From: Argopecten irradians
Taxonomy: Eukaryota; Mollusca; Bivalvia; Pectinida; Pectinidae
Length of the DNA: 64,000 nucleotides
Reading direction: 5' to 3'
NCBI RefSeq assembly: GCF_041381155.1
Contig: NC_091138.1
Location: 18,973,255-19,037,254, forward strand
Below, piece by piece: positions 2,913 through 51,500 of this stretch; positions within the stretch are counted from its first letter, which is position 1; the number at the start of each line of letters is the position of its first letter. Below the pieces are notes generated by a model. The model saw only the letters and a program-made list of their open reading frames with translations, was not told the DNA's origin and did not search any database. A program made the position numbers and the translations under genes.

Positions 2913-5900
2913 AGACCGGTACCAGTGCAGCTAGTCATAAAGAAGTGATGAAGCTGCGGAAGGCCAACCAACAACTTCAGGAAGAAAACAACTTACTGAA
3001 ACTTAAAACAGATATACTGCTGGATATGGTAAGAAAAAGTGATCTAGAAAATATTTCTGTATTTGTAGTACATTTTTACGACTGGATATGGAATTTTGCT
3101 AGTGGACATTTGATACAAATGTACATTCTGGATTGAGAAGTCAGTGCCTTATGTTTCTTATTCTACATATTTAATTTCATTTAAATTTTATTCACATATT
3201 TATTTTGAAGGAAGCCAAAGTATTTACACTTACAATTTTGATTCAATAGCATTTTTTGAAGCATAAACATTGTCTGCTCTAAAATATATAGATTTCTAGA
3301 TATTGATAGCTTATCAAAGTTAATTACTTGCTGTCATGTATTGCATGATCGACTCCATGTCTATGATGTGAAATGATTGTCCCTGGTTTGAATTTATATG
3401 ACTGTAATCTAATGAACACTTGGTAGAATATTACTGGAATTAACTGCTGATCAACCAGTACATGTTCATGTTCTGTGAGACAGTGTTACATGAACGAATA
3501 ACAGAAAGGAGAAACCAGCAGCTAAATTCAAAACACAATTTAATTATATATACAATATTATACAGAGATGGTTTACAATATCTAAAGTAATTGGTGGTGG
3601 TACAAGACTAGTACGATGATTTAAAGTGTTACTTATCTGTATGCGAATGTCCTGGTATAATCCTTGATCCTTCCAGGTTTCAAATTAACAATAATCACAA
3701 ATCCACAAGGAAATTGAATGTCCACCGATGATTTGTAAAGTTCCAGGCAATATGAAAAAATCCACACAAAGTGTTGTAATAATCCACAGATAAAGTCACA
3801 ATAGCTCTCCCAATAGAATCTTATATGGCGCTGTACAATTCTTGATATGTCTTATTACAGGTCTCATTACAGTTCTGATTAGCCTTGGACAGCTGGAGTG
3901 TATATAGCTAAACCGTAATTCAAGAATATTTGAGAACCTTCTACTTCTAGAAATATCTAACTAAAAACAGTAAACAAGTAAACACACATAACTTTCTGGA
4001 AATAGATCATTCTAGATCTCTACTTAAAATCAACATGTTTACAAACATATTTGTTTATACATGATTAAATTCTAGAAAGTTCTATAACCTAAATCAATGA
4101 TATGACCTTCATAGGATGTATTGATAAAAAAAAGCTATAGGAGTTATCTCCCTTATCTCATAACTACATGTATTTAGTGTCATACATAACACACCCCTCC
4201 TTAAAGAAAAGAAAGTTTTCTTGAAAAGGAAACTTTCTTGACATATCAAGTAATATTTAAATCCTTGATAAAGCATCAGCTAGAATATTGTCTTTCCCTT
4301 TGATATGTTTGATGTCAAGATTGTACTCTTGCAAAGTCAAACTCCACCTGAGAATTCTTTGATTTTTGTTTTTCATTTTCCCAATGAATGTCAAAGGGTT
4401 GTGGTCGGTGAAGACCAACACAGGCACAACTGTAGTGCAGAGATACACATCAAATTGGTTTAAGGCCAAAATCAATGCTAAACATTCTTTCTCAATGGTG
4501 GAATAATTTCTCTGGTGTTTGTCAAACTTTTTCGAGAAATAACAAATTGGATGGTCAATTTGTTCAGTACCTTCTTGCATCAAAACAGCACCAACACCTA
4601 CATCGCTGGCGTCAACAAACAGTTTAAACTGTTTATTAAAATCTGGAGCAGTCAGAACTGGTGAGTTTGATAGTATGGCTTTCAATTTCTCAAAGGCAGA
4701 CTTACATTCGTCTGACCAGAAAAATTTGACATTTTTCTTTAACAAAGCAGTAAGTGGAGCTGCTATAACAGAGAAATTTTGACAAAATTTTCTGTAGTAT
4801 CCAGCCATACCAAGAAACCTCATCAGCTCTCTCTTGCCTCCAGGAGCTGGAAAATCTATAATTGATTCTACTTTGGCCTGAACAGGTTTAACCTGCCCCT
4901 GTCCTACAACATGGCCTAAAAATTCAACAGTTGCATGACAAAATTCACATTTCAATAAGTTTACAGTCAATTTCATGGTAGTGAGTCTTTCGAAGAATTC
5001 ACGAATCCCGCGTAGATGGTCTTCCCACGTGTCGTGGTAGTTGATGACGTCATCAATGTATCCATCACAGCCTTCCAGGTCTGATATCACGCTGTTAAGA
5101 AGACGTTGAAATGTTGCCGGGGCATTCTTCATACCAAATGGCATAACTTTGTACTGGTACAAACCTTGCGAGGTTACAAATGCCGACACTTCTTTAGCTC
5201 TTTCTGTTAATGGCACCTGCCAATATCCTTTCAACAGGTCAAACTTGCTTACGTACTTGGCTTTGCCAACTTTGTCAATACACGAGTCAATCCTTGGAAT
5301 TGGATAAGAGTCTGTTTTTACTGACAGAGTTTACTTTTCTGAAGTCAGTACAGAACCGGTATGTCTTGTCTGGCTTTGGCACCAGAACACATGGAGAGCT
5401 CCATTCACTTTTGCTTGGTTCAATAATATCATTGTCCAACATGTATTGAATTTCTTTCTTTAAGTGTTCTTCTTTCAAAGGATTGACACGGTAAGGATGT
5501 TGCTTGACAGGTGGCGCATCGCCTACATCCACGTCGTGATAGATAGCATCTGTTTTGCCTGGTGTATCCGGAAACAAATGTTTATACTCAAGTATCAAAT
5601 CTTTAAGTTCATTGCGTTCTTTTTCCGATAGATGACACAGTTTCTTGTCCAAGTTCGCGAGCACATCTGAATTCCGTAACTTAACACCACAGTCTAAACC
5701 TACATCTTGTACACCACCATCTATGTCTAATTTACAAATATCAGCTGTACTTTCACTTTGTGATGGTACAGAGGCCAAAGTAGCAATAGGTTGAGAGGTC
5801 TTGCTCTCTTCTCTATCTACATATTTCTTAAGCATATTAACATGACATAATTGAGTTTTCTTGCGCCTCCCTGGAGTTTGTACAATGTAGTTAACATCAT

Positions 5901-8900
5901 CGACCTTTTTCTCAACAACATAAGGTCCAAAATATCTAGCTTGCAAAGGCTGACCCGGTATTGGTAATAGAGCCAAAATTTTGTCACCTGGATCAAAACT
6001 TCTTGCACGGGCATCTTTATCATACCATGTTTTCATTTTGGTTTGAGTAACGGCCAAATTTTCTTTTGCCAGTTCACATGCCCTTGTCAACCTTTGCTTA
6101 AAGTTAGACACATACTCTAAGAGATTAACTTTAGAATCTTCGTCCAAAATTTTGTCTTTCAAAATTTTCAAAGGACCACGTACAGTATGTCCAAACACAA
6201 GTTCAAAGGGACTGAAGCCAAGAGATTCTTGTACAGATTCTCTAACGCCAAACAACAACATGTGTATACCTTCGTCCCAATCTCTTTTGTTTTCAAAACA
6301 ATAAGATCTCATCATATTCTTCAATGTCTGATGAAAACGTTCTAAAGCACCCTGAGACTCTGGATGATAAGCACTAGACTTATACTGCTTGATCTGGAGC
6401 TGGTACATGACTTGTTGAAAAATACCAGACATGAAATTCGAACCTTGGTCCGATTGGACAGCTTTTGGAAGACCAACCAATGTAAAGAATTTAACCAAAG
6501 CCTTGACTATGTTAGGGGCTTTAATATTCCTGAGTGGAATGGCTTCAGGAAAGCGTGTAGAAGCACACATAATAGTTAAAAGATACTCATTCCCAGACTT
6601 AGTTTTGGGTAGAGGACCTACACAGTCTATAATGACTCTATTAAATGGTTCCTCAAATGCTGGAATGGGGTGCAAAGGTGCAACAGGGATTTTCTGATTA
6701 GGTTTCCCTACCACCTGACAAGTATGACAAGACCTACAAAAATCAGCCACATCCCGTTTCAACTTGGCCCAAAAGAAGTGATCTAAGATCCTGTTATAAG
6801 TCTTGGTCACACCTAGATGCCCTGCCATAGGTACGTCATGAGACAAAACTTAGAATATCTTGCCTATACCTCGGTGGGACAACTATTTGATTGACAACCT
6901 TCCAGTCTTCCTCAGGAGACACATCAGGGGGGCGCCACTTGCGCATCAACACACCTGACTGACGGAAGTAACAAACCGGGACTTTCTCAGCCTCTTCCTC
7001 ACTCAAAGCCCGATTACACAATAAGGAGATTTCATGATCTTTCTCCTGTTCTACTATAAGCTCCTCTCTAGACAAAGATGATTTACTCATCATGTCAGAC
7101 AAAGAAGTACCCTTGTTAGGAACAACTCTATCACTATCAAAGTCTACAGGATTGCTCAAAAGATCACACTTGCTCCCGATATCCTCTATATCATGAGCCA
7201 AGAAAGTGTCACCTAACCCTGGACTATAATGATCCTCAACTACTGCAACATCAGAAACCTTCTTACTCATTGAACGAGTTACAGCACAAGAAGGGAAAAT
7301 ACCAGGAAATTCCTGTTGAATAGTCTCAGCATCATCTGTTTTATCAGGGATACTGGACACTAAGGGATCTACCCTAACTTTCTCTCCAGCCAAGTCATTG
7401 CCTAAAATGAGCGACACGCCCTCTATGGGAAGTTCCGATCTAACACCAATGGTGACAGGCCCAGTAACCAAGTCTGACTTTAAATAAACACAATGGAGAG
7501 GCACATTAACAAAACCTAACTCTACACCTTGAAGCAAAACACTACTACCAGATGAGGTCTCCTCAGACAAAGGCACTACACCATCTAATATTAAAGAATG
7601 AGAAGCCCCAGTATCTCTCAAAATCTTCACAGGTTTCAAGTTGGTGATATCACTAGTAAGTGAAACAAAACCTTCAGAAATGAAGGGAGAGTACTTCTCC
7701 AAGACACTATCAGACTCTGAGCTCTTGATCTCAACAGACACTTTAGAATCTTCCACAACATCACTAAGTTTCTGACTAGGCTTTGACATAGCTAACACAG
7801 AAGGAACTGACTGTTTACGCCTTTGCTCCTTACGCTGGAGAGAATAACATTCAGACATAATATGTCCTACTTTCTTGCAGTAATTACAAACAGGACCAGA
7901 AGGAGACCCCACACCTGCCCTATGATCTGTTTTAGAATCAGACTTAGTCTTATCACCTAATTTAGGTTTGTCGTTAGAAGGGCCACTAAAGGTTGTGTTG
8001 CTAGGCTGACCAAATTTACTAGTACCTGTGGTACTGTTTTTGTCTTGAGAACTGTTTTTAACAAATGAGCCTTTGTGGGTGAGAGCGTAATCATCAGCCA
8101 TTGTAGCTGCTTCACTAAGTGTTTCAACTTTTCTCTCATCTAAATGAGTTTTTTATGTTTGTGTGGACACAACGTTTAAACTCCTCTATCAACAATAATT
8201 GCCTCAATTTACCGAAATCCTCATCAATTTCTTTAGAATCACACCACCTATTAAATAATTGTTCTTTTTCTCTGGCAAATTCTACATGAGTTTGTTCATC
8301 TCTCTTTCTCGAGTTTCGAAATTTCTGGCGGTAAGCCTCAGGAACTAACTCATAAGCTTTCAAAATAGCTTTCTTGACTACTTGGTAATTTGAAATCTCA
8401 TCTACAGATAAAGAAGAATAAATGTCTCTAGCTTTACCAATCAAGACACTTTGAAGAAGCATTGTAAGCTTATCTTCAGGCCATTTCATACTATCAGCTA
8501 TTTTCTCAAAATGCAGAAAATACTTGTCAACTTCTTTCTCTTGAAAAGGAGGAACTAACCTAATGTTTCTACTGACATCAAAACCTCTGTTTCCTTGTAA
8601 ACCCCTAAAAGTTAGATTACTTGAACTGTCTTGAGAAGCTAGCTCTAATTCTTTCATTCTAAGTTCTGTTTCAGCTTGAATTTTCTGCTTCTCTAGCTCT
8701 AACATCTGATCTCTCTCAATCTCTCTTTCTTTTAATTCTCTTTCAATTTCTTTTTCTCTTAACTCTTTTTCTATTTCCATTTGTCTTAGTTTCATTTCAT
8801 GTTCAAGTTCCATTTGTCTAATTTGAATTTCTGAGCTGACTGTTTCCTCTATACTATCTAATGCACTAGAGTCAAATTTGTCATTGTCAACAAAATATCT

Positions 8901-10186
8901 TATAATTACATTCCTAATTTCAGCTTTCCTCAAATTAGTTTTGATAGTAAGGCCTAAATGTTTACCCAATAACAGTAAATCCTTCTTACTAACTTGCAAA
9001 AGAACTTCCAGGGATGGCGCTTTAACAAACTGTTCTACTTGCATAGTAGTCATATTTATCTAGCTGTTGGTTTCAAATGTAAACTCAAAGTTTGTACACA
9101 AATTTTGAAAATTTCTTAATTAATTTTTCAAAGTTAGATTTCACAAATTGAATATCGATCCCGGACGAGCCCCCAATTCTGTTACATGAACGAATAACAG
9201 AAAGGAGAAACCAGCAGCTAAATTCAAAACACAATTTAATTATATATACAATATTATACAGAGATGGTTTACAATATCTAAAGTAATTGGTGGTGGTACA
9301 AGACTAGTACGATGATTTAAAGTGTTACTTATCTGTATGCGAATGTCCTGGTATAATCCTTGATCCTTCCAGGTTTCAAATTAACAATAATCACAAATCC
9401 ACAAGGAAATTGAATGTCCACCGATGATTTGTAAAGTTCCAGGCAATATGAATAAATCCACACAAAGTGTTGTAATAATCTACAGATAAAGTCACAATAG
9501 CTCTCCCAATAGAATCTTATATGGCGCTGTACAATTCTTGATATGTCTTATTACAGGTCTCATTACAGTTCTGATTAGCTTTGGACAGCTTTGGAGTATA
9601 TATAGCTAAACCCTAATTCAAGAATATTGGAGAACCTTCTACTTCTAGAAATATCTAACTAAAAACAGTAAACAAGTAAACACACATAACTTTCTGGAAA
9701 TAGATCATTCTAGATCTCTACTTAAAATCAACATGTTTACAAACATATTTGTTTATACATGATTAAATTCTAGAAAGTTCTATAACCTAAATCAATGATA
9801 TGACCTTCATAGGATGTATTGATAAAAAAAAGCTATAGGAGTTATCTCCCTTATCTCATAACTACATGTATTTAGTGTCATACATAACATGTTCTGTGAG
9901 ACAGACTGTATGCATAAGTATCATATCCATGTAAGGCAGTTTGACTTGGTCATTAATCAACTTCCAGATAGCCCGGATTGGTAGAGAATTCATCTTGTGT
10001 TCCTGGATTTCACTCCTATTACACATGTGTATACGTGTATGTGGACTTTTTTGTTTTCATCCCCTATCCACTAATCACAGTTGAAATCTTCATTATTATT
10101 TTTTTTTCCAGTTGGCAGAAGCATCAGCAGTGTCGCATTATCATGAAAATGAACTGAAGCAGTTAAAGGCTGGACGGAGAAAGTGA
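2913..10186 (+). CDS. CBY1: Chibby homolog, last two coding exons (partial)
   Basis: Two exons encode the C-terminal coiled coil of Chibby, the small protein that binds beta-catenin and acts at the ciliary base. Exon 2913-3028 (acceptor TTGACAG, donor GTAAGA) gives ETGTSAASHKEVMKLRK and then EENNLLKLKTDILLDM. Exon 10112-10186 (acceptor TTTCCAG) gives LAEASAVSHYHENELKQLK, AGRRK and a stop. Human CBY1 has the parallel tail EENNLLRLKVDILLDM followed by LSESTAESHLMEKELDEL, and it also ends in basic residues. The join keeps the frame. The first exon begins inside a Glu codon, so at least one more coding exon lies upstream. I saw no N-terminal exon between 1 and 2912. The 7-kb intron between the two exons is almost entirely an LTR element inserted antisense. 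Confidence 0.88.
3469..3483. repeat. Left copy of 15-bp target-site duplication
   Basis: TGTTCTGTGAGACAG sits directly outside the left LTR and is repeated exactly at 9890-9904 directly outside the right LTR. LTR elements normally duplicate 4-6 bp, so 15 bp is notable. Confidence 0.85.
3484..4191 (-). repeat. LTR (3' LTR in element orientation)
   Basis: The boundaries are TGTTA at 3484 and TAACA ending at 4191, forming a short perfect inverted repeat. The sequence is about 99% identical to 9180-9889. A purine-rich tract on the minus strand (4192-4202) adjoins it, as expected of a polypurine tract. Confidence 0.93.
4257..5480 (-). mobile_element. Pol region of the LTR element: reverse transcriptase and RNase H
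   Basis: Reverse transcriptase hallmarks are visible, including MPFGMKNAPATFQ and the catalytic YIDD box. They are followed by the thumb/connection (RKFCQNFSVIAAPL) and an RNase H domain with FVDASDVGVGAVL, the STIEKECLA motif and TDHNPLTF. These are standard Ty3/gypsy signatures. The domain pair is the last in the polyprotein order, just before the polypurine tract. Confidence 0.9.
5800..7000 (-). mobile_element. Pol region of the LTR element: integrase, upstream of reverse transcriptase
   Basis: An HHCC zinc-binding module (GHLG, then CRSCHTC) is followed by the catalytic D,D,E core around VIIDCVGPLP, VQSDQGSNF and SQGALERFHQTLK. A C-terminal GPY-type module (GPYVVEKK) comes next. This integrase precedes reverse transcriptase in the element, the feature that places it with Gmr1-like elements. 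Confidence 0.9.
7350..7890 (-). mobile_element. Zinc knuckle and aspartic protease of the LTR element
   Basis: A CCHC zinc knuckle of spacing CX2CX4HX4C lies at 7847-7888 (minus strand). The protease active site, DTGAS within LRDTGASHSLI, lies near 7604-7620. Both are standard for gag-pol of this class. Confidence 0.88.
8136..9053 (-). mobile_element. Gag region of the LTR element
   Basis: The N-terminal part has a SAP-like helix (LEVLLQVSKKDLLLLGKHLG). A long Glu/Arg-rich coiled coil made of repeated QMEIEKEL-type segments follows. The retrotransposon gag domain comes next (VDKYFLHFEKIADSMKWPE to FNRWCDSKEIDEDFGKLRQL). It lies directly downstream of the primer-binding site in element orientation. 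Confidence 0.85.
9158..9175 (-). promoter_or_regulatory. Primer-binding site complementary to tRNA-Pro
   Basis: On the minus strand this reads TGGGGGCTCGTCCGGGAT, four bases from the 5' LTR. That is the 18-base site used by murine leukemia virus for tRNA-Pro, from memory an exact match. Confidence 0.88.
9180..9889 (-). repeat. LTR (5' LTR in element orientation)
   Basis: The boundaries are TGTTA at 9180 and TAACA ending at 9889. It pairs with 3484-4191. The copy is followed immediately by the second copy of the 15-bp host duplication (9890-9904). Confidence 0.93.
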
Positions 10187-42500: not shown

Positions 42501-45500
42501 CATGTATACATACCATTTACTCAGCGTTTAGTGAGCTAGACATGTATAACAAAGACTACCTCAATATTTAGTGAACTGGCCATATATATACTCAACACTA
42601 TCTCAGTGTTTATAGTGAGCTAAAAAAGTTCAACTATAATTACCTCAATGTTCAGTGAGCTAATCATGTATAACCACCTTTTACAAAATCATCAACAGCG
42701 TACAATTTCAACAGGAAATTCAAATTAAACCTTTGGATCAACAATACATAGTGCATATGATACATTGTGTTAAGTAATTGAACAGATCATGAACATAAGG
42801 TACATTGTGTTAAGTAATTGAACAGATCATGAACATAAGGTAAAAGGCACAGGTATGTTTGGCTAGGGGATTGGGTGAGTTTGAGGCCTGGATAGGCAGT
42901 GAGTACTCAGTACTTCCTCTGTGTTTAGTGAGCTAGACATGCCTACTTCTACCGGTGTTTAGAGAGTTAAGCATGAATACTCACAACTATTTCCCTATTT
43001 GCTCAGCTACATAGCCTTTATAGGTAAACCTAAACTAATAAAATATTTATATAATTAAAGACTGGCATACCTACATATTCACAGCCTCAGTTTAGGGAGG
43101 AACACTTACCTTACGTTTATAGATGTACGCCAAAACCCCAATTGCTACTTGTACCACAAAAGCTATGACAGTAAAAGACAGGAACTGGAAACAAAATTTC
43201 ATAATTATATATAGTGTCTCAATGAAAATGGATCTTATAAACATTTCAATTAATTTAATTATTTCTCTTTTCTATCGAGTTCATTTTCTCACCCATAGTA
43301 TGCAAGATAAGTAATTTGCGTCATACTTACTAGTTTGAGGAGTAGAGAATTCTCCTTTAATGTGCCACAGATACCACCAAAAGCATTGATGGCCACAAAC
43401 AACCCCACAAACATTACAAGGGCGACCGGCAGTGACAGAGAATTGTTGAGGTGTCGATGGTTTTGTCTCTCCAGCTCCGTAAATATCCCAAGGATGAACA
43501 ATCCAAGCCCCACAAACTAAAACATGACAATGGAACAATTGCAACAGGTGTTTGTTGTCAACAGATATAACTTTATAATAAATATGTGCTATATTACTGT
43601 AACAGGGTGCAGGGTTTACAATAAATTTATTACCTGCCTCTGCCAGGGATCGAACTCGGGACCTCTGGATTACTAGTCTGACGCTCAACCGATCGAGCTA
43701 AAGAGAAGTTCTCTCTAGCCGAGCGATATATTGCGGCTAGTATTGACCAGGGTTACATACTCCCCCTCCAGGGATGAACTCGTCTGCGAGTTTCCAGGGG
43801 TCACAACGATTCCTTCGCAGGTATCGTGAAGTATCATTCCCGAGTCCCTACATGGGCGCCAATGTAACAGGGTGCAGGATTTACAATAAATTTAATACCT
43901 GCCTCTGCCAGGGATCGAACTCGGGACCTCTGGATTACTAGTCTGACGCTCAACCGATCGAGCTAAAGAGAAGTTCTCTCTAGCCGAGCGATATATTGCG
44001 GCTAGTATTGACCAGGGTTACATATGTGCTTATTACTTTCAACATCTATAAGATGACCTTTCTCTGCTTGAATTCAACATTTTGAATAAGTGTTTTTTGT
44101 TTGTTTTTTTTTCTTGTAATTTTCATATGTAACAAGCACTTGATGTTTATAAATCTTCGCTGGTGCTTACTTTATTCAATTCTTATGACAGGAGCTGTTA
44201 TCTTCAATAATCATAACAGGTGTTTGTTGTATATATGCATATGCAATACATGTCATGGGAAGATTTTCAAAAACACAGTAAAACATTCACATTTTACAGT
44301 TTAATTGCTATCAAAACCTTCTATAGATATGTGGTTATTTATAAGGTTAAATATACATTTGAGTTTTATTCTACAACCTTATATTACTAGACCATATAAT
44401 TACTTGATAACAATGTATGCGCACATGACACATACACCTTATATCTGTATAAAGTGTTTAACTTTGCGGCTACAATGTTCGACATGACCTATGTCTACAT
44501 ATGAATTGTTATGTAGGTTATCACATCCCAGGGAAATTCAAACCAAGGTCATCTCATTCAATCATATGATTTATGTGAACCTTCAAGTCCTTGACATTGG
44601 ATTGTCTGCCCTGCATTAGGGCATTAGAATTATACCTTCTGTCTCTTTGCATGCTTGTAAAATGGGCACTAAAGTAATCTTGTCTTTTTTAATCTTCCAA
44701 ACTGATCATGACTATCTTTCTTCCTAACATCTCTGATTCTCCGTGGACACTGCCTCGATTTTGGCCTTGAAGTGAATGCTTGGCCCTGCGAGGAAGGCTC
44801 TGGGTTCTGTCCCCTAGTTGAGACATACCCTAGTCTATTAGTGGTAGCTTATGCTCCTGTTGTCAGTATAATGTGACCAGGTTGTGTGGGGTGTAATTGT
44901 TCTGTGACTGGTGTGGTACATGTGATTGTTTTGTCTCTAGCAGCATGCTTCAGTAAGAAGGCAAAAGGCAAGAGTTCCACTATTACAAATAGTCATAACA
45001 CAAACTTACTACAGTCTCCTAAAACATGCACCCACTTCACACACACAACACAAACTTACTGCAGTCTCCTAAAACATGCACCCACTTCACACACACAACA
45101 CACAAACTTACTGCAGTCTCCTAAAACATGTATGCACTTCATACACACAACACAAACTAAATGCAGTCTCCTAAAACATGCACCCACTTCACATACTCAA
45201 CACAAACTAACTGCAGTCTCCCAAAACATGCATGTACTACCATGCATACTCACACACACACAACACAAACTTACTGCAGTCTCCCAAAACATGCACACAC
45301 TTCACACACACAACATACTAAATACATAGGCAGTTAATAGTAAAAGCTAGGACATTACAGTCACACTATAACCAACCAACTATTATTACATTGTCCATTT
45401 CAGGTAAAGTTCAATATAAGTTTTATATGCTTATATCATGGAGATAAATAATTATACGTAAATATGTGTTGATGGGATGCATATTACTTATTTGTGAGTT

Positions 45501-48500
45501 TGGGATATACAATGCATATCAAGTATACATGTAATGTAATTCAAAATGTCAGCTAGATCTATAGGTGTGCACGTCTCAACATATAATTTTTCACATGATG
45601 TTTTTTTAAACACATGTACTTTTTCCAAGTAGAATGAGTATACATCATCTCACATATATTTGAATACAATCATTGTTCTACTCATAAATGAATGGTTTTA
45701 GATATAATATGAGAATTTCATCCGCATGAGTCATTTGTTTATATAAAAGAGTGAAAATATTGATCTGCACCTATAGGTATGTCAATAACAAAATCAATAT
45801 ATGATTTTTATTTGTTCAAATGTTCAGCATTTAAACAGCGTTATTATTTGAAAGGATAAGCATATTTATGTACATTTTGTATAATATAGTCCAAATGAAG
45901 TCTAGCTGGTTGTCAATTATGATAACACCTAGTACATATTGTATCTGTTACTGTTGTGAAGTACTGTCTATATCTGTATATACAGATATATTTTCAGTCT
46001 CTCATCACTGTAAGTAACAGATGATATATAACCCTTGATCTCTATTCCCCTGTTATATGTATACCAATCCCTGATCTCTACTCCCCTGTTATATGTATAC
46101 CAATCCCTGATCTCTACTCCCCTGTTATATGTATACCAATCCCTGATCTCTACTCCCCTGTTATATGTATACCAATCCCTGATCTCTACTCCCCTGTTAT
46201 ATGTATACCAATCCCTGATCTCTACTCCCCTGTTATATGTATACCAATCCCTGATCTCTACTCCCCTGTTATATGTATACCAATCCCTGATCTCTACTCC
46301 CCTGTTATATGTATACCAATCCCTGATCTCTACTCCCCTGTTATATGTATACCAATCCCTGATCTCTACTCCCCTGTTATATGTATACCAATCCCTGATC
46401 TCTATTCCCCTGTTATATGTATACCAATCCCTGATCTCTACTCCCCTGTTATATGTATACCAATCCCTGATCTCTACTCCCCTGTTATATGTATACCAAT
46501 CCTGATCTCTACTCCCCTGTTATATGTATACCAATCCCTGATCTCTACTCCCCTGTTATATGTATACCAATCCCTGATCTCTATCCCCTGTTATATGTAT
46601 ACCAATCCCTGATCTCTATCCCCTGTTATATGTATACCAATCCCTGATCTCTACTCCCCTGTTATATGTATACCAATCCCTGATCTCTACTCCCCTGTTA
46701 TATGTATACCAATCCTGATCTCTACTCCCTGTTATATGTATACCAATCCCTGATCTCTACTCCCCTGTTTATATGTATACCAATCCCTGATCTCTACTCC
46801 CCTGTTATATGTATACCAATCCCTGATCTCTACTCCCCTGTTATATGTATACCAATCCCTGATCTCTACTCCCCTGTTATATGTATACCAATCCCTGATC
46901 TCTACTCCCCTGTTATATGTATACCAATCCCTGATCTCTATCCCCTGTTATATGTATCCAATCCTGATCTCTACTCCCCTGTTATATGTATACCAATCCC
47001 TGATCTCTACTCCCCTGTTATATGTATACCAATCCCTGATCTCTACTCCCTGTTATATGTATACCAATCCTGATCTCTACTCCCCTGTTATATGTATACC
47101 AATCCCTGATCTCTACTCCCTGTTATATGTATACCAATCCCTGATCTCTACTCCCCTGTTATATGTATACCAATCCCTGATCTCTACTCCCCTGTTATAT
47201 GTATACCAATCCCTGATCTCTACTCCCCTGTTATATGTATACCAATCCCTGATCTCTACTCCCCTGTTATATGTATACCAATCCCTGATCTCTACTCCCC
47301 TGTTATATGTATACCAATCCCTGATCTCTACTACTCCCTGTTATATGTATACCAATCCCTGATCTCTACTCCCCTGTTATATGTATACCAATCCCTGATC
47401 TCTACTCCCCTGTTATATGTATACCAATCCCTGATCTCTACTCCCCTGTTATATGTACAATCCCTGATCTCTATCCCCTGTTATATGTATACCAATCCCT
47501 GATCTCTACTCCCTGTTATATGATACCATCCCTGATACCAATCCTGATCTCTACTCCCCTGTTATATGTATACCAATCCCTGATCTACTCCCCTGTTATA
47601 TGTATACCAATCCCTGATCTCTACTCCCCTGTTATATGTATACCAATCCCTGATCTCTACTCCCCTGTTATATGTATACCAATCCCTGATCTCTACTCCC
47701 CTGTTATATGTATACCAATCCCTGATCTCTACTCCCCTGTTATATGTATACCAATCCCTGATCTCTACTCCCCTGTATAATGATCTCTATCCCTGTTATA
47801 TGATACCAATCCCTGATCTCTACTCCCCTGTTATATGTATACCAATCCCTGATCTCTACTCCCTGTTATATGTATACCAATCCCTGATCTCTACTCCCCT
47901 GTTATATGTATACCAATCCCTGATCTCTACTCCCCTGTTATATGTATATACCAATCCCTGATCTCTATCCCCTGTTATATGTATACCAATCCCTGATCTC
48001 TACTCCCCTGTTATATGTATACCAATCCCTGATCTCTACTCCCCTGTTATATGTATACCAATCCCTGATCTCTACTCCCCTGTTATATGTATACCAATCC
48101 CTGATCTCTACTCCCCTGTTATATGTATACCAATCCCTGATCTCTACTCCCCTGTTATATGTATACCAATCCCTGATCTCTACTCCCCTGTTATATGTAT
48201 ACCAATCCCTGATCTCTACTCCCCTGTTATATGTATACCAATCCCTGATCTCCCCTGTTATATGTATACCAATCCCTGATCTCTACTCCCCTGTTATATG
48301 TATACCAATCCCTGATCTCTACTCCCCTGTTATATGTATACCAATCCCTGATCTCTACTCCCCTGTTATATGTATACCAATCCCTGATCTCTACTCCCCT
48401 GTTATATGTATACCAATCCCTGATCTCTACTCCCCTGTTATATGTATACCAATCCCTGATCTCTACTCCCCTGTTATATGTATACCAATCCCTGATCTCT

Positions 48501-51500
48501 ACTCCCCTGTTATATGTATACCAATCCCTGATCTCTACTCCCCTGTTATATGTATACCAATCCCTGATCTCTACTCCCCTGTTATATGTATACCAATCCC
48601 TGATCTCTACTCCCCTGTTATATGTATACCAATCCCTGATCTCTACTCCCCTGTTATATGTATACCAATCCCTGATCTCTACTCCCCTGTTATATGTATA
48701 CCAATCCTGATCTCTATCCCCTGTTATATGTATACCAATCCCTGATCTCTACTCCCCTGTTATATGTATACCGATCCCTGATCTCTACATTCCCTGTTAT
48801 ATAATAATCCCTGATCTCTACTCCCCTGTACACCTATCTATAACTGGGGACTGCTGCTCCTGAAATATTCATATCCTCAATTGGTTACAGAGGCTACAAT
48901 GGTCCAATTAGCCCCACATTTAATCTTTGTCTAAATTACCAGGAGACCTATAGTATTGGTACACATGGGGAGCATCTTCAATCTCTGGCCATCTCCAAAT
49001 AATAGGGCAGTTCGTTTCCAATAAGTATTTCATTAATGTGCACTACACTTGCTTGTACTGAGTGACTTTAGCATTCACCAGAAATAGTTCTGCCTCTGTG
49101 TCATTCAGCCAAGGAATGGAAGTACATTTCTACACATCCAAGTGCATATTACTACAAGATATATGGTCTGTGTATCTGGTAATAAGATCAGAGGCCGGGT
49201 TCTGGCTAGCTAGAAGGTTGTATTGGTGTCAAAGACATGACCAGCAGTAACATTTCACACAGACTTAGGGAACGTAGCAAGCCTTAGTCTAAGAAATTCT
49301 GCAGTGTAATTTTTAGCTGTGTAAAATAGACAATCAAAGGTTCTGTTGTGCATTACCAATTAAACTTTTAAAGCATCAACTCTTATGTTCTCCAATTTTT
49401 AATGCTGTAAGAATCTTTCATGTGTGTTGAATCAGTCAAAAACTAAATACATATATATATATACAATATAATCAAAATTTATCCCATTAAATTCTGTTTT
49501 CCATTAATTAATTTCATAATCATAACAAGGTAAAATACGGTATGTAAAATTAAGAAACAGTTTAATAAAAGAAATATAATTGATAAGTAATGAAACCGAT
49601 CAGGTTTACTGCACTAGTTAAAAACTCACAGTAATAATGGTATTGAAGGTTTTTGATATTATCTAGATTTTATGTTTCATTTAAAGTTTTTATCAGCACA
49701 TGATGATATTGTTGTAAGTGTTATAAAAGGACTTGTCTTGAAACCAATCCCAGAGTGCTAGTGCCATCTACTGGGTAGATAACAGATACGCCAGGTACCG
49801 GACACACCAGGTATCAGCAGGTACGCTGACATCACAGATTACAGGTGATACCAGGTGTGAACTTTGATACAGGGGTATAACAGACTGCGTGTAAGGATGT
49901 TCGGACCTGAATCACTCATGGTGATAAGGTATCGGATGTTAGATCTCCCCAATGGTGACATCATAATCTGTCTATATGTAATCTCCAAATATATGTACTA
50001 CACCTATACCAAGAGGCCCTGACGTTTATCATGTAGCTCTATTTATCATCAAGTGTACTTCATGTAAGATTTTCATGATATATATATATACTGTAGATAT
50101 TTCTACAACTTAAAAACTGAATGGAACGAAAGGAAAATTGTGGCTAAATATCTACCCCCTATATATGCTTTTCAAGAAACTAAATGCATTTGTCTTACAA
50201 TAAAACCATATCAATATACCTCGGTAAATGAAAAAAGAGAACACAGCTTTTTGATAATTTATATAATATCCCCTGGAATATTTATTAAATATGAAATATC
50301 ACTATTTCAATTGTAGATTTTTTTACCAGATATATATACAAATGTACTGAAGTTGTGATGAATAAAGCTTTCTGTGAGAAGTATAGACAGAGTTATATAG
50401 TATCTTGCAAAACAATTGATAACTTAATACAACATATCCATTATAAGAGGTATATAGAAAAAAGAAACCTTATCAATGGCAAATATTGCAAACAAATGTG
50501 TAATGCCATTGAGGATACTCTTATTACTAGTGATAAAGGAAATGATACACCTGCTACTGAAGAACTGTATTTGTATTACATTCAATCATGTTAAAGAACT
50601 ACAACCAGAAAAATTTTTTCATGATTTTTTACACTTTTTTAACGTCAGATCATGACATTATTTCCTCTCTACAACATGCTAATTATAACTAGCAATTATC
50701 ACTACTTCATGAGAGGAAATAGTTTGGCACAACAGCCAACCTGAACTGTATAATAGACGATAAACAAGTTTCCTATAGTCTACACCCATAAACATCTGTT
50801 GTAGGAATATTGTATGTGATGCATGGGGAAAACAGATGCATGCACACCACAAAAACATTTACTTATATAACTAATACCAGCTATGAAGCTTCTTATATAT
50901 CAAACAGCTGTTTCAAGTTATCCCCAGTATATGGCTCTAGTCAAATCGTAAAATTGTATATATACATAACTATAGTGTAATTATTTGTGACTATAAAAGA
51001 GGGGACATTATCCTAGCATAGCGGAAACTGTTTTGTATTTAGCAGGGCTATTTTGGCTATAATGTCAGTCGAAAAAAACCATCCCTAAAAATACTATTAC
51101 CATTGTTTTGTGAGTCTATGCTTTGAATAAATCTACACATAAAAAATTACATCAACTTTATGCTTCAGTTGTCCTATCTTCCACACCCTCTTAATTTGCG
51201 CTTGTACAGCTCATACCTAACACAGCTCACATTAAAATGACCCTATGCTCATATAATTGCATGTAAAAGGATTTCCCCCAAAGCAGAAAATCTATAATTG
51301 TTCTCATAAATATCAAAAGGGAAGGATGACAATCACTCAGTGATGATTCACATTGATACATCCCTGCTGGATGTGCACACCATTATTGGCATTATACCAC
51401 AATGTCAGTACAAACCTATCATTAACCACAAAGGATTGTAGGTTTTCTGGGATAAATATGATCACAAATAGCCCCTAGTACATCTCCATACAGTTATTTA

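What the first reader, a model, noticed from the sequence alone, without database searches (positions are those of the whole stretch)
43598..44022. TRIM whose LTRs carry a tRNA-like Pol III promoter body
Seen: 160-bp direct repeats ending TGTAAC/GTTACA, a TGGCGCC-type primer-binding site, a purine tract, a 105-bp non-coding interior, and inside each LTR an A-box plus B-box in tRNA order. Known: the plant Cassandra TRIMs carry 5S rRNA sequence in their LTRs. A tRNA-derived module in an animal TRIM would be a parallel solution. Inference: the LTR may be transcribed by Pol III while copying uses a partner element's reverse transcriptase, a hybrid between a SINE and an LTR element.
Basis: partly seen in the sequence, partly recalled or inferred. 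Interest (0 to 1): 0.82.

Follow-up and report, generated by a model that had tools for sequence, protein, structure and literature searches.

The report
Tiny jumping element with tRNA-like promoter
This is a very small retrotransposon whose end repeats carry a degenerate transfer-RNA gene that probably drives its transcription; the type was described in 2024 (Helenus), so it is a good new example of a known kind, with one oddity in how this copy entered the chromosome.

Summary
Two 160-bp LTRs (2 differences) flank a 105-bp interior with a primer-binding site and purine tract. Each LTR carries a full-length tRNA-like module (20.9 bits, below Rfam's cut-off of 29). The same genome holds 154 exact LTR-PBS junctions (reversed control 0); 33 of 68 usable loci have a 4-bp target duplication (shuffled mean 3.4). 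The PBS is an exact 18/18 complement of the host's own tRNA-Lys(UUU). A Ty3/Gypsy-type element in this genome has the same PBS (19/19 letters) and is a candidate helper. Six diverged LTRs keep the tRNA module while the LTR 3' end changes. This is Helenus (Kojima 2024, PMC10886601), described from six animal phyla including molluscs: a new member of a known kind. Pol III transcription remains untested. Unexpected: the window copy lacks a 4-bp duplication and sits between 14/15-bp direct repeats, and three other copies have exact 15-22-bp duplications with slightly trimmed LTR ends, which suggests that a minority entered without integrase.

The parts
43863..44022 (-). 5' LTR (160 bp, TGTAAC...GTTACA)
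   Evidence: the same 160-bp boundaries in most of the 40 regions
43900..43972 (-). tRNA-like module of the 5' LTR (A box 43954-43965 TAGCTCGATCGG; B box 43911-43921 AGTTCGATCCC; box names and limits recalled)
   Evidence: Rfam RF00005 20.9 bits, full length; 58-67 of 73 positions kept in the six diverged LTRs compared
43844..43861 (-). primer-binding site TGGCGCCCATGTAGGGAC, one T after the LTR
   Evidence: exact 18/18 complement of the 3' end (with CCA added) of host tRNA-Lys(UUU) genes L133-L135; 67 of 80 interiors begin with it exactly
43758..43862 (-). interior, 105 bp
   Evidence: recurs in other copies: 63 of the 80 interiors collected are 105 bp
43777..43792 (-). perfect 6-bp hairpin AACTCG-CAGA-CGAGTT before the purine tract, role unknown
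   Evidence: fold of the whole interior not better than shuffles, z -0.97; a 5-bp-stem form in 67 of 80 interiors
43758..43769 (-). polypurine tract GGAGGGGGAGTA against the 3' LTR
   Evidence: mean purine content of the last 12 nt is 0.88 over 80 interiors
43598..43757 (-). 3' LTR (160 bp)
43635..43707 (-). tRNA-like module of the 3' LTR (A box 43689-43700, B box 43646-43656)
44023..44036 (-). upstream flanking direct repeat GTAATAAGCACATA
   Evidence: 14 against 15 nt with one indel; swapped flanks score 8 or more in 0 of 3000
43583..43597 (-). downstream flanking direct repeat GTAATATAGCACATA; no 4-bp duplication in this copy

Best explanation
A non-autonomous LTR retrotransposon (TRIM) of the Helenus type. 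Inferred: RNA polymerase III starts at the tRNA-derived A and B boxes in the 5' LTR and reads through the interior and the 3' LTR; in the window copy the sense strand has no TTTT before a site about 76 nt beyond the element. Shown by sequence: host tRNA-Lys(UUU) can pair with the PBS over 18 of 18 bases. Inferred: a Ty3/Gypsy that uses the same primer supplies capsid, reverse transcriptase and integrase; minus-strand DNA jumps to the matching R region inside the 3' LTR, plus-strand synthesis starts at the purine tract, and integrase inserts the DNA. Shown: 33 of 68 usable loci carry 4-bp target duplications, as this route predicts. This particular copy has 14/15-bp flanking repeats instead, so it more likely entered by end-joining of its cDNA at a staggered break.
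For: Anatomy. Recurrence in the genome. 4-bp duplications in 33 of 68 loci, shuffled mean 3.4, maximum 9 in 2000 shuffles. PBS 18/18 to host tRNA-Lys(UUU). Gypsy-type element with the same 19 letters after its LTR and an open RT-RNaseH-integrase-zinc frame about 4 kb downstream; no tRNA match was reported in its LTR pieces (L129, L131). In six diverged LTRs (L052, L055, L060, L068, L120, L122) the tRNA module keeps 58-67 of 73 positions and the last 37 nt keep 14-25; in L052 and L120 the first 50 nt are lost too (18 and 23 kept) while the module stays. A second tRNA-bearing TRIM family in the same genome scores 48-50 bits. Published Helenus share the tested features.
Against: No expression data. 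The tRNA score is below the gathering cut-off and ARAGORN calls no tRNA. Among the relatives, only L122 gave tRNA matches (24.5, 25.6 bits); none was reported for L052, L055, L060 or L120 at E 1 in that 15-kb search. In four of the six diverged LTRs the first 50 nt are kept about as well as the module (43-47 of 50), and positions 97-112 with the B box keep only 12 of 16 in L060 and L122. Within the main family the module is no better kept than the rest of the LTR. 10 of 129 LTRs contain TTTT, and a sequence of this make-up lacks TTTT 44% of the time anyway, so its absence is weak evidence. ATTAAA (95 of 129) or AATAAA (22 of 129) in the LTRs would also fit Pol II. 31 of 68 loci show neither a 4-bp nor a long exact duplication. 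Gypsy and TRIM share only the PBS; the next letters differ.
Confidence: 0.8

Rival explanations
1. The 160-bp unit is a tRNA-derived SINE that happens to occur twice here.
For: The tRNA-like head and the long flanking repeats of this copy are SINE-like.
Against: The interior recurs with exact PBS (67 of 80) and purine tract; 4-bp duplications in 33 of 68 loci; 154 LTR-PBS junctions against 0 in the control. The loci were selected by full-length, interior or junction queries, so they cannot show how many LTRs are solitary; lone LTRs could not be counted.
Confidence: 0.02
2. A Pol II-driven TRIM in which the tRNA module is only a relic; ATTAAA/AATAAA in the LTR serves as polyadenylation signal.
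For: ATTAAA in 95 and AATAAA in 22 of 129 LTRs; no terminator needed; L068 keeps ATTAAA; the first 50 nt of the LTR are kept as well as the module in four of six diverged LTRs.
Against: The 5' LTRs of L052, L055, L060, L120 and L122 lack both signals, yet keep 58-67 of 73 positions of the tRNA module.
Confidence: 0.22
3. The window copy and a few others entered by LINE-type target-primed reverse transcription rather than by capture of cDNA.
For: Direct repeats of 15-22 bp, and 14/15 bp in the window copy.
Against: The four copies start at LTR position 1-14 and end at 143-160, with no A-rich tail and no TT|AAAA-like target seen by eye; an RNA started at the tRNA module would lack the first ~45 nt of the LTR.
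Confidence: 0.15
4. The long flanking repeats were already tandem repeats at the target before a normal insertion.
For: Fits L021 and L016, which also have a 4-bp match, and L127, which is low-complexity. Unbroken sites of the window look like such repeats (score 10 or more) in 5 of 6000.
Against: The window copy has no 4-bp duplication, L034, L041 and L043 are exact over 15-22 bp, and those three have trimmed LTR ends.
Confidence: 0.2

Closest known systems
Helenus (Kojima 2024, PMC10886601)
   Different: No tested feature differs in kind. Added here: exact match of the PBS to the host's own tRNA-Lys gene, a Gypsy with the same PBS in the same genome, and copies with 15-22-bp flanking duplications, not mentioned in the parts read.
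Cassandra (plants, 5S rRNA in the LTR)
   Same: Small-RNA-derived Pol III promoter inside the LTR of a TRIM
   Different: 5S instead of tRNA; Cassandra is reported to end its transcript in the 5S part of the 3' LTR with conserved terminators (PMC10886601, passage), whereas the window copy has no TTTT in its LTRs
biv-TRIM (Satovic 2019, PMC6934838; abstract and first part of Results seen)
   Same: TRIM found in bivalves, with tandem copies
   Different: 202-218-bp repeats, 77-80-bp interior, no unambiguous PBS; here 160 and 105 bp with an exact PBS. Sequences were not compared.
tRNA-derived SINEs (recalled)
   Same: tRNA-like Pol III promoter head
   Different: LTRs, PBS, PPT and 4-bp duplications

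Membership tests
Helenus | TRIM layout: two short LTRs around a short interior without coding capacity | tested here: met
   no frame of 150 aa or more touches it, though a 138-aa stop-to-stop frame of the flank runs into the 3' LTR
Helenus | tRNA-derived sequence inside each LTR | tested here: met
   (20.9 bits, full length, both LTRs); below the gathering score
Helenus | PBS complementary to a host tRNA just after the 5' LTR | tested here: met
   18/18 to tRNA-Lys(UUU) with CCA
Helenus | polypurine tract before the 3' LTR | tested here: met
Helenus | 4-bp TSD (animal families) | tested here: met
   For the family: 33 of 68 loci. The window copy itself does not have one.
Helenus | sequence match to a named Helenus family | not testable with these tools
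   Repbase and the paper's supplements were not available
Helenus | working Pol III promoter (expected by Kojima, not shown there either) | not testable with these tools
   no RNA data
Cassandra | 5S rRNA sequence in the LTR | tested here: not met
   the only Rfam matches at E up to 1 in 43300-44300 are tRNA
SINE | solitary unit with LINE-type tail and long TSD | tested here: not met
   four of 68 loci have long duplications

The most novel reading that the evidence does not exclude
This Pol III-type TRIM uses two doors into the chromosome: integrase (4-bp duplications) and, for a minority that includes the window copy, integrase-free capture of its linear cDNA at staggered breaks, leaving 14-22-bp duplications and slightly trimmed LTR ends. 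A Gypsy in the same window (3484-9889) with an exact 15-bp flanking repeat hints that this route is not confined to the TRIM.
Probability: 0.4. Interest if true: 0.5.

Novelty: new member of a known kind. Interest (0 to 1): 0.32.

Why it matters
It gives an independent, well-supported case of a tRNA-promoter TRIM, and adds to the published description: the PBS fits the host's own tRNA-Lys(UUU) exactly and a Gypsy-type element in the same genome shares it, so the helper question becomes directly testable. Two tRNA-bearing families live in one genome, one with TTTT after the tRNA and one without, which allows a test of how Pol III can make a full-length template. The long-duplication copies would be natural examples of integrase-free insertion.

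Tried and rejected
Absence of TTTT as a signal: rejected as weak (a sequence of this make-up lacks it 44% of the time; 30 of 298 background pieces lack it; 10 of 129 LTRs and 1 of 80 interiors have gained it). Better conservation of the tRNA module within the main family: not seen; differences per 10-bp bin were 0.014-0.049 with no dip at the boxes. Interior fold: z -0.97, not special; the whole-element fold z -3.58 was not used, since two near-identical structured LTRs are enough to expect it. Polyadenylation signal as a conserved feature: absent from five of six diverged 5' LTRs. One scan of viral contigs with a 26-base pattern and one search of phages gave no match. LINE-type target motif at the long duplications: none seen by eye. 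The solo-LTR count and other copies of the window Gypsy could not be obtained: the genome machine did not answer.

Full report
What is there. The element occupies 43598-44022 and reads on the minus strand. 5' LTR 43863-44022 and 3' LTR 43598-43757 are 160 bp each and differ at two positions. The 105-bp interior starts with T plus TGGCGCCCATGTAGGGAC and ends with GGAGGGGGAGTA directly before the 3' LTR. None of the 16 stop-to-stop frames of 150 aa or more in the window touches it; a 138-aa stop-to-stop frame of the flank runs into the 3' LTR. Each LTR matches Rfam's tRNA model over its full length on the same strand (20.9 bits; gathering score 29), with several unpaired stem positions; ARAGORN reports no tRNA gene. 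It is a degenerate, whole-length tRNA-like module, not just two boxes. The element lies about 80 bp upstream of an open frame, on the same strand, that resembles a tetraspanin exon (Pfam E 9.5e-07, 29.1 bits, just under its cut-off of 32.1).

Is it a family? Yes. In the own genome (845.8 Mb, 1508 contigs, unnamed) the 425-bp query has 44 scored matches (a lower bound), the window copy included, and the LTR-PBS junction GTTACATTGGCGCCC occurs 154 times against 0 for the reversed control. I examined the flanks of 79 loci (further loci at the same places were dropped by eye, and eight loci in one minisatellite were left out). 68 of the 79 are distinct by their flanks and have LTR sequence at both ends; the filter was strict, so at least one pair in the 68 is a single insertion copied with its flank (L046/L049), and L093, L115, L116 and L117 share flanks. 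Where both LTRs have equal length they differ at 0-5 positions, so activity is recent. Of 80 interiors, 63 are 105 bp long and 67 begin with the exact PBS. Tandem forms with three LTRs exist (L010, L029, L034, L039, L122, L123).

How it inserts. 33 of the 68 loci have exact 4-bp flanking duplications (L046 and L049 both counted; the ambiguous L016 and L021 are among them); shuffling the flank pairs gives a mean of 3.4 and a maximum of 9 in 2000 rounds. 31 show neither kind: 18 of these have broken, diverged or BLAST-shortened ends, 13 do not; L015 and L037 have 6-bp repeats, and L127 an imperfect 14-bp repeat in low-complexity sequence. Four have long duplications: L041 22 bp, L034 20 bp, L043 15 bp (all exact) and the window copy 14/15 bp with one indel. 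Swapped flanks reach a score of 8 or more in 0 of 3000; random pairs from the window reach 10 in 6 of 6000, and unbroken window sites in 5 of 6000. The three exact cases have trimmed LTR ends (start 14, 3, 5; end 160, 143, 157 for L034, L041, L043), while 32 of the 33 copies with 4-bp duplications have exact ends. Small losses at the ends of LTR DNA are reported for break-dependent integration of a retrovirus under integrase inhibition (PMC3605128, passages). Integrase-free insertion of an LTR element is known from fission yeast, but there it goes mostly into sequences partly like the element, by annealing (reviewed in PMC12786077, passages; the primary paper is not held), so it is not the same event. 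I favour cDNA capture at staggered breaks for this minority. Four loci is a small number, and two other readings (LINE-type insertion, tandem repeat at the target) are not excluded.

Primer and helper. The host has tandemly arrayed tRNA-Lys(UUU) genes; the three fetched end in GTCCCTACATGGGCG, and with CCA added this is the exact complement of the 18-nt PBS (L133, L134, L135; the other two of five stretches fetched, L136 and L137, are not tRNA-Lys). A pattern that excludes this TRIM's usual LTR end found 29 further junctions with the same PBS start, 25 of them reading CTACATTGG; at least two of the other four are by place TRIM-derived (one in the minisatellite, one 266 bp from a TRIM junction). 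I looked into one (C15:607495): an LTR ending in CTACTACA is followed by the identical 19 letters TTGGCGCCCATGTAGGGAC, and 4 kb further on lies an open frame with reverse transcriptase, RNase H and integrase zinc-binding domains in that order. A second copy of its LTR lies 8.1 kb downstream. Beyond the PBS the two elements share nothing obvious, so this shows a common primer, not a proven helper; the stretch between the two pieces was not read.

Promoter. Against six diverged relatives the tRNA module keeps 58-67 of 73 positions, while the last 37 nt of the LTR keep 14-25. The first 50 nt keep 43-47 in L055, L060, L068 and L122, which is as good as the module, but only 18 and 23 in L052 and L120, where the module alone stands out. 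Positions 97-112 with the B box keep 12-16 of 16; part of the change in L055, L060 and L122 is from GATCCC to GAATCC or AATCC. The two L122 modules found score 24.5 and 25.6 bits; no tRNA match was reported for L052, L055, L060 or L120 in the same search. Within the main family there is no such contrast. A second family in the same genome (L138-L140, LTR about 131 bp, interior about 93 bp) has a far better tRNA (48.4-49.6 bits) followed by TTTT, an LTR end CTGTTACA (CTATTACA in one LTR), a TTGGCGCCCAAC primer site, and exact 4-bp duplications in two of three copies (CTGT, CAAG, read by eye). The window copy has no TTTT, so a Pol III transcript could run through both LTRs; because such a make-up lacks TTTT 44% of the time by chance, this is a suggestion only. 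Pol III use is inferred throughout.

What is known. Kojima 2024 (PMC10886601; abstract, Results, Discussion, figure and table texts and some passages read) describes Helenus: TRIMs with tRNA-like LTRs in fungi, plants and six animal phyla, 51 families in pteriomorph bivalves, 4-bp duplications in animals, tRNA-Lys among the primers of bivalve families, and Gypsy as suspected helper. The features tested here agree. A search for 'Helenus', 'TRIM' and 'retrotransposon' lists only that paper. Long duplications in Helenus are not mentioned in the parts read; my searches on long duplications and integrase-free insertion listed no paper on Helenus.

Verdict. The host-tRNA match, the shared PBS and the long-duplication copies are the additions.

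Noticed in passing
window 3484-9889, minus strand: Ty3/Gypsy element with 710-bp LTRs (98.9% identical), integrase domains upstream of reverse transcriptase, a SCAN match in gag (30.1 bits, cut-off 27), and a primer site that looks like tRNA-Pro (recalled). It resembles the Gmr1-like type (recalled). An exact 15-bp repeat CTGTCTCACAGAACA flanks it instead of 4-6 bp. Other copies could not be checked.
   Followed up: partly
L138, L139, L140 (C1 and C6 of the genome): A second tRNA-bearing TRIM family, spacing about 223 bp, tRNA score 48-50 bits, TTTT after the tRNA, 4-bp duplications in two of three copies. It may make up most of the 746 pattern matches that are not tRNA-Lys genes (inferred from the part listed).
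   Followed up: partly
L133-L135; contigs C561, C608, C614, C672, C931 and C10: tRNA-Lys-like genes in long tandem arrays with a unit of about 1.6 kb; three fetched are tRNA-Lys(UUU) by ARAGORN.
   Followed up: partly
L071-L078 (C2:72603292-72606709): Minisatellite of 56 bp, about 60 units, made of the last bases of this LTR and the first 44 of the interior: a TRIM fragment turned into a tandem repeat.
   Followed up: partly
L110 around 1000-1040: TRIM LTR and PBS joined head to head to an inverted primer site of what looks like another LTR element, as if two cDNAs had met at their primer sites.
   Followed up: no
L129-L132 (C15:606801-615700): The candidate helper Gypsy occurs in tandem with an 8.1-kb unit; the second PBS differs after its first 14 letters.
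   Followed up: partly
L115, L116, L117, L093: TRIM copies with shared flanking sequence, so they probably travelled inside a larger repeat.
   Followed up: no
window 46036-48829: Long tandem array, 36-bp unit, open in several frames on both strands.
   Followed up: no
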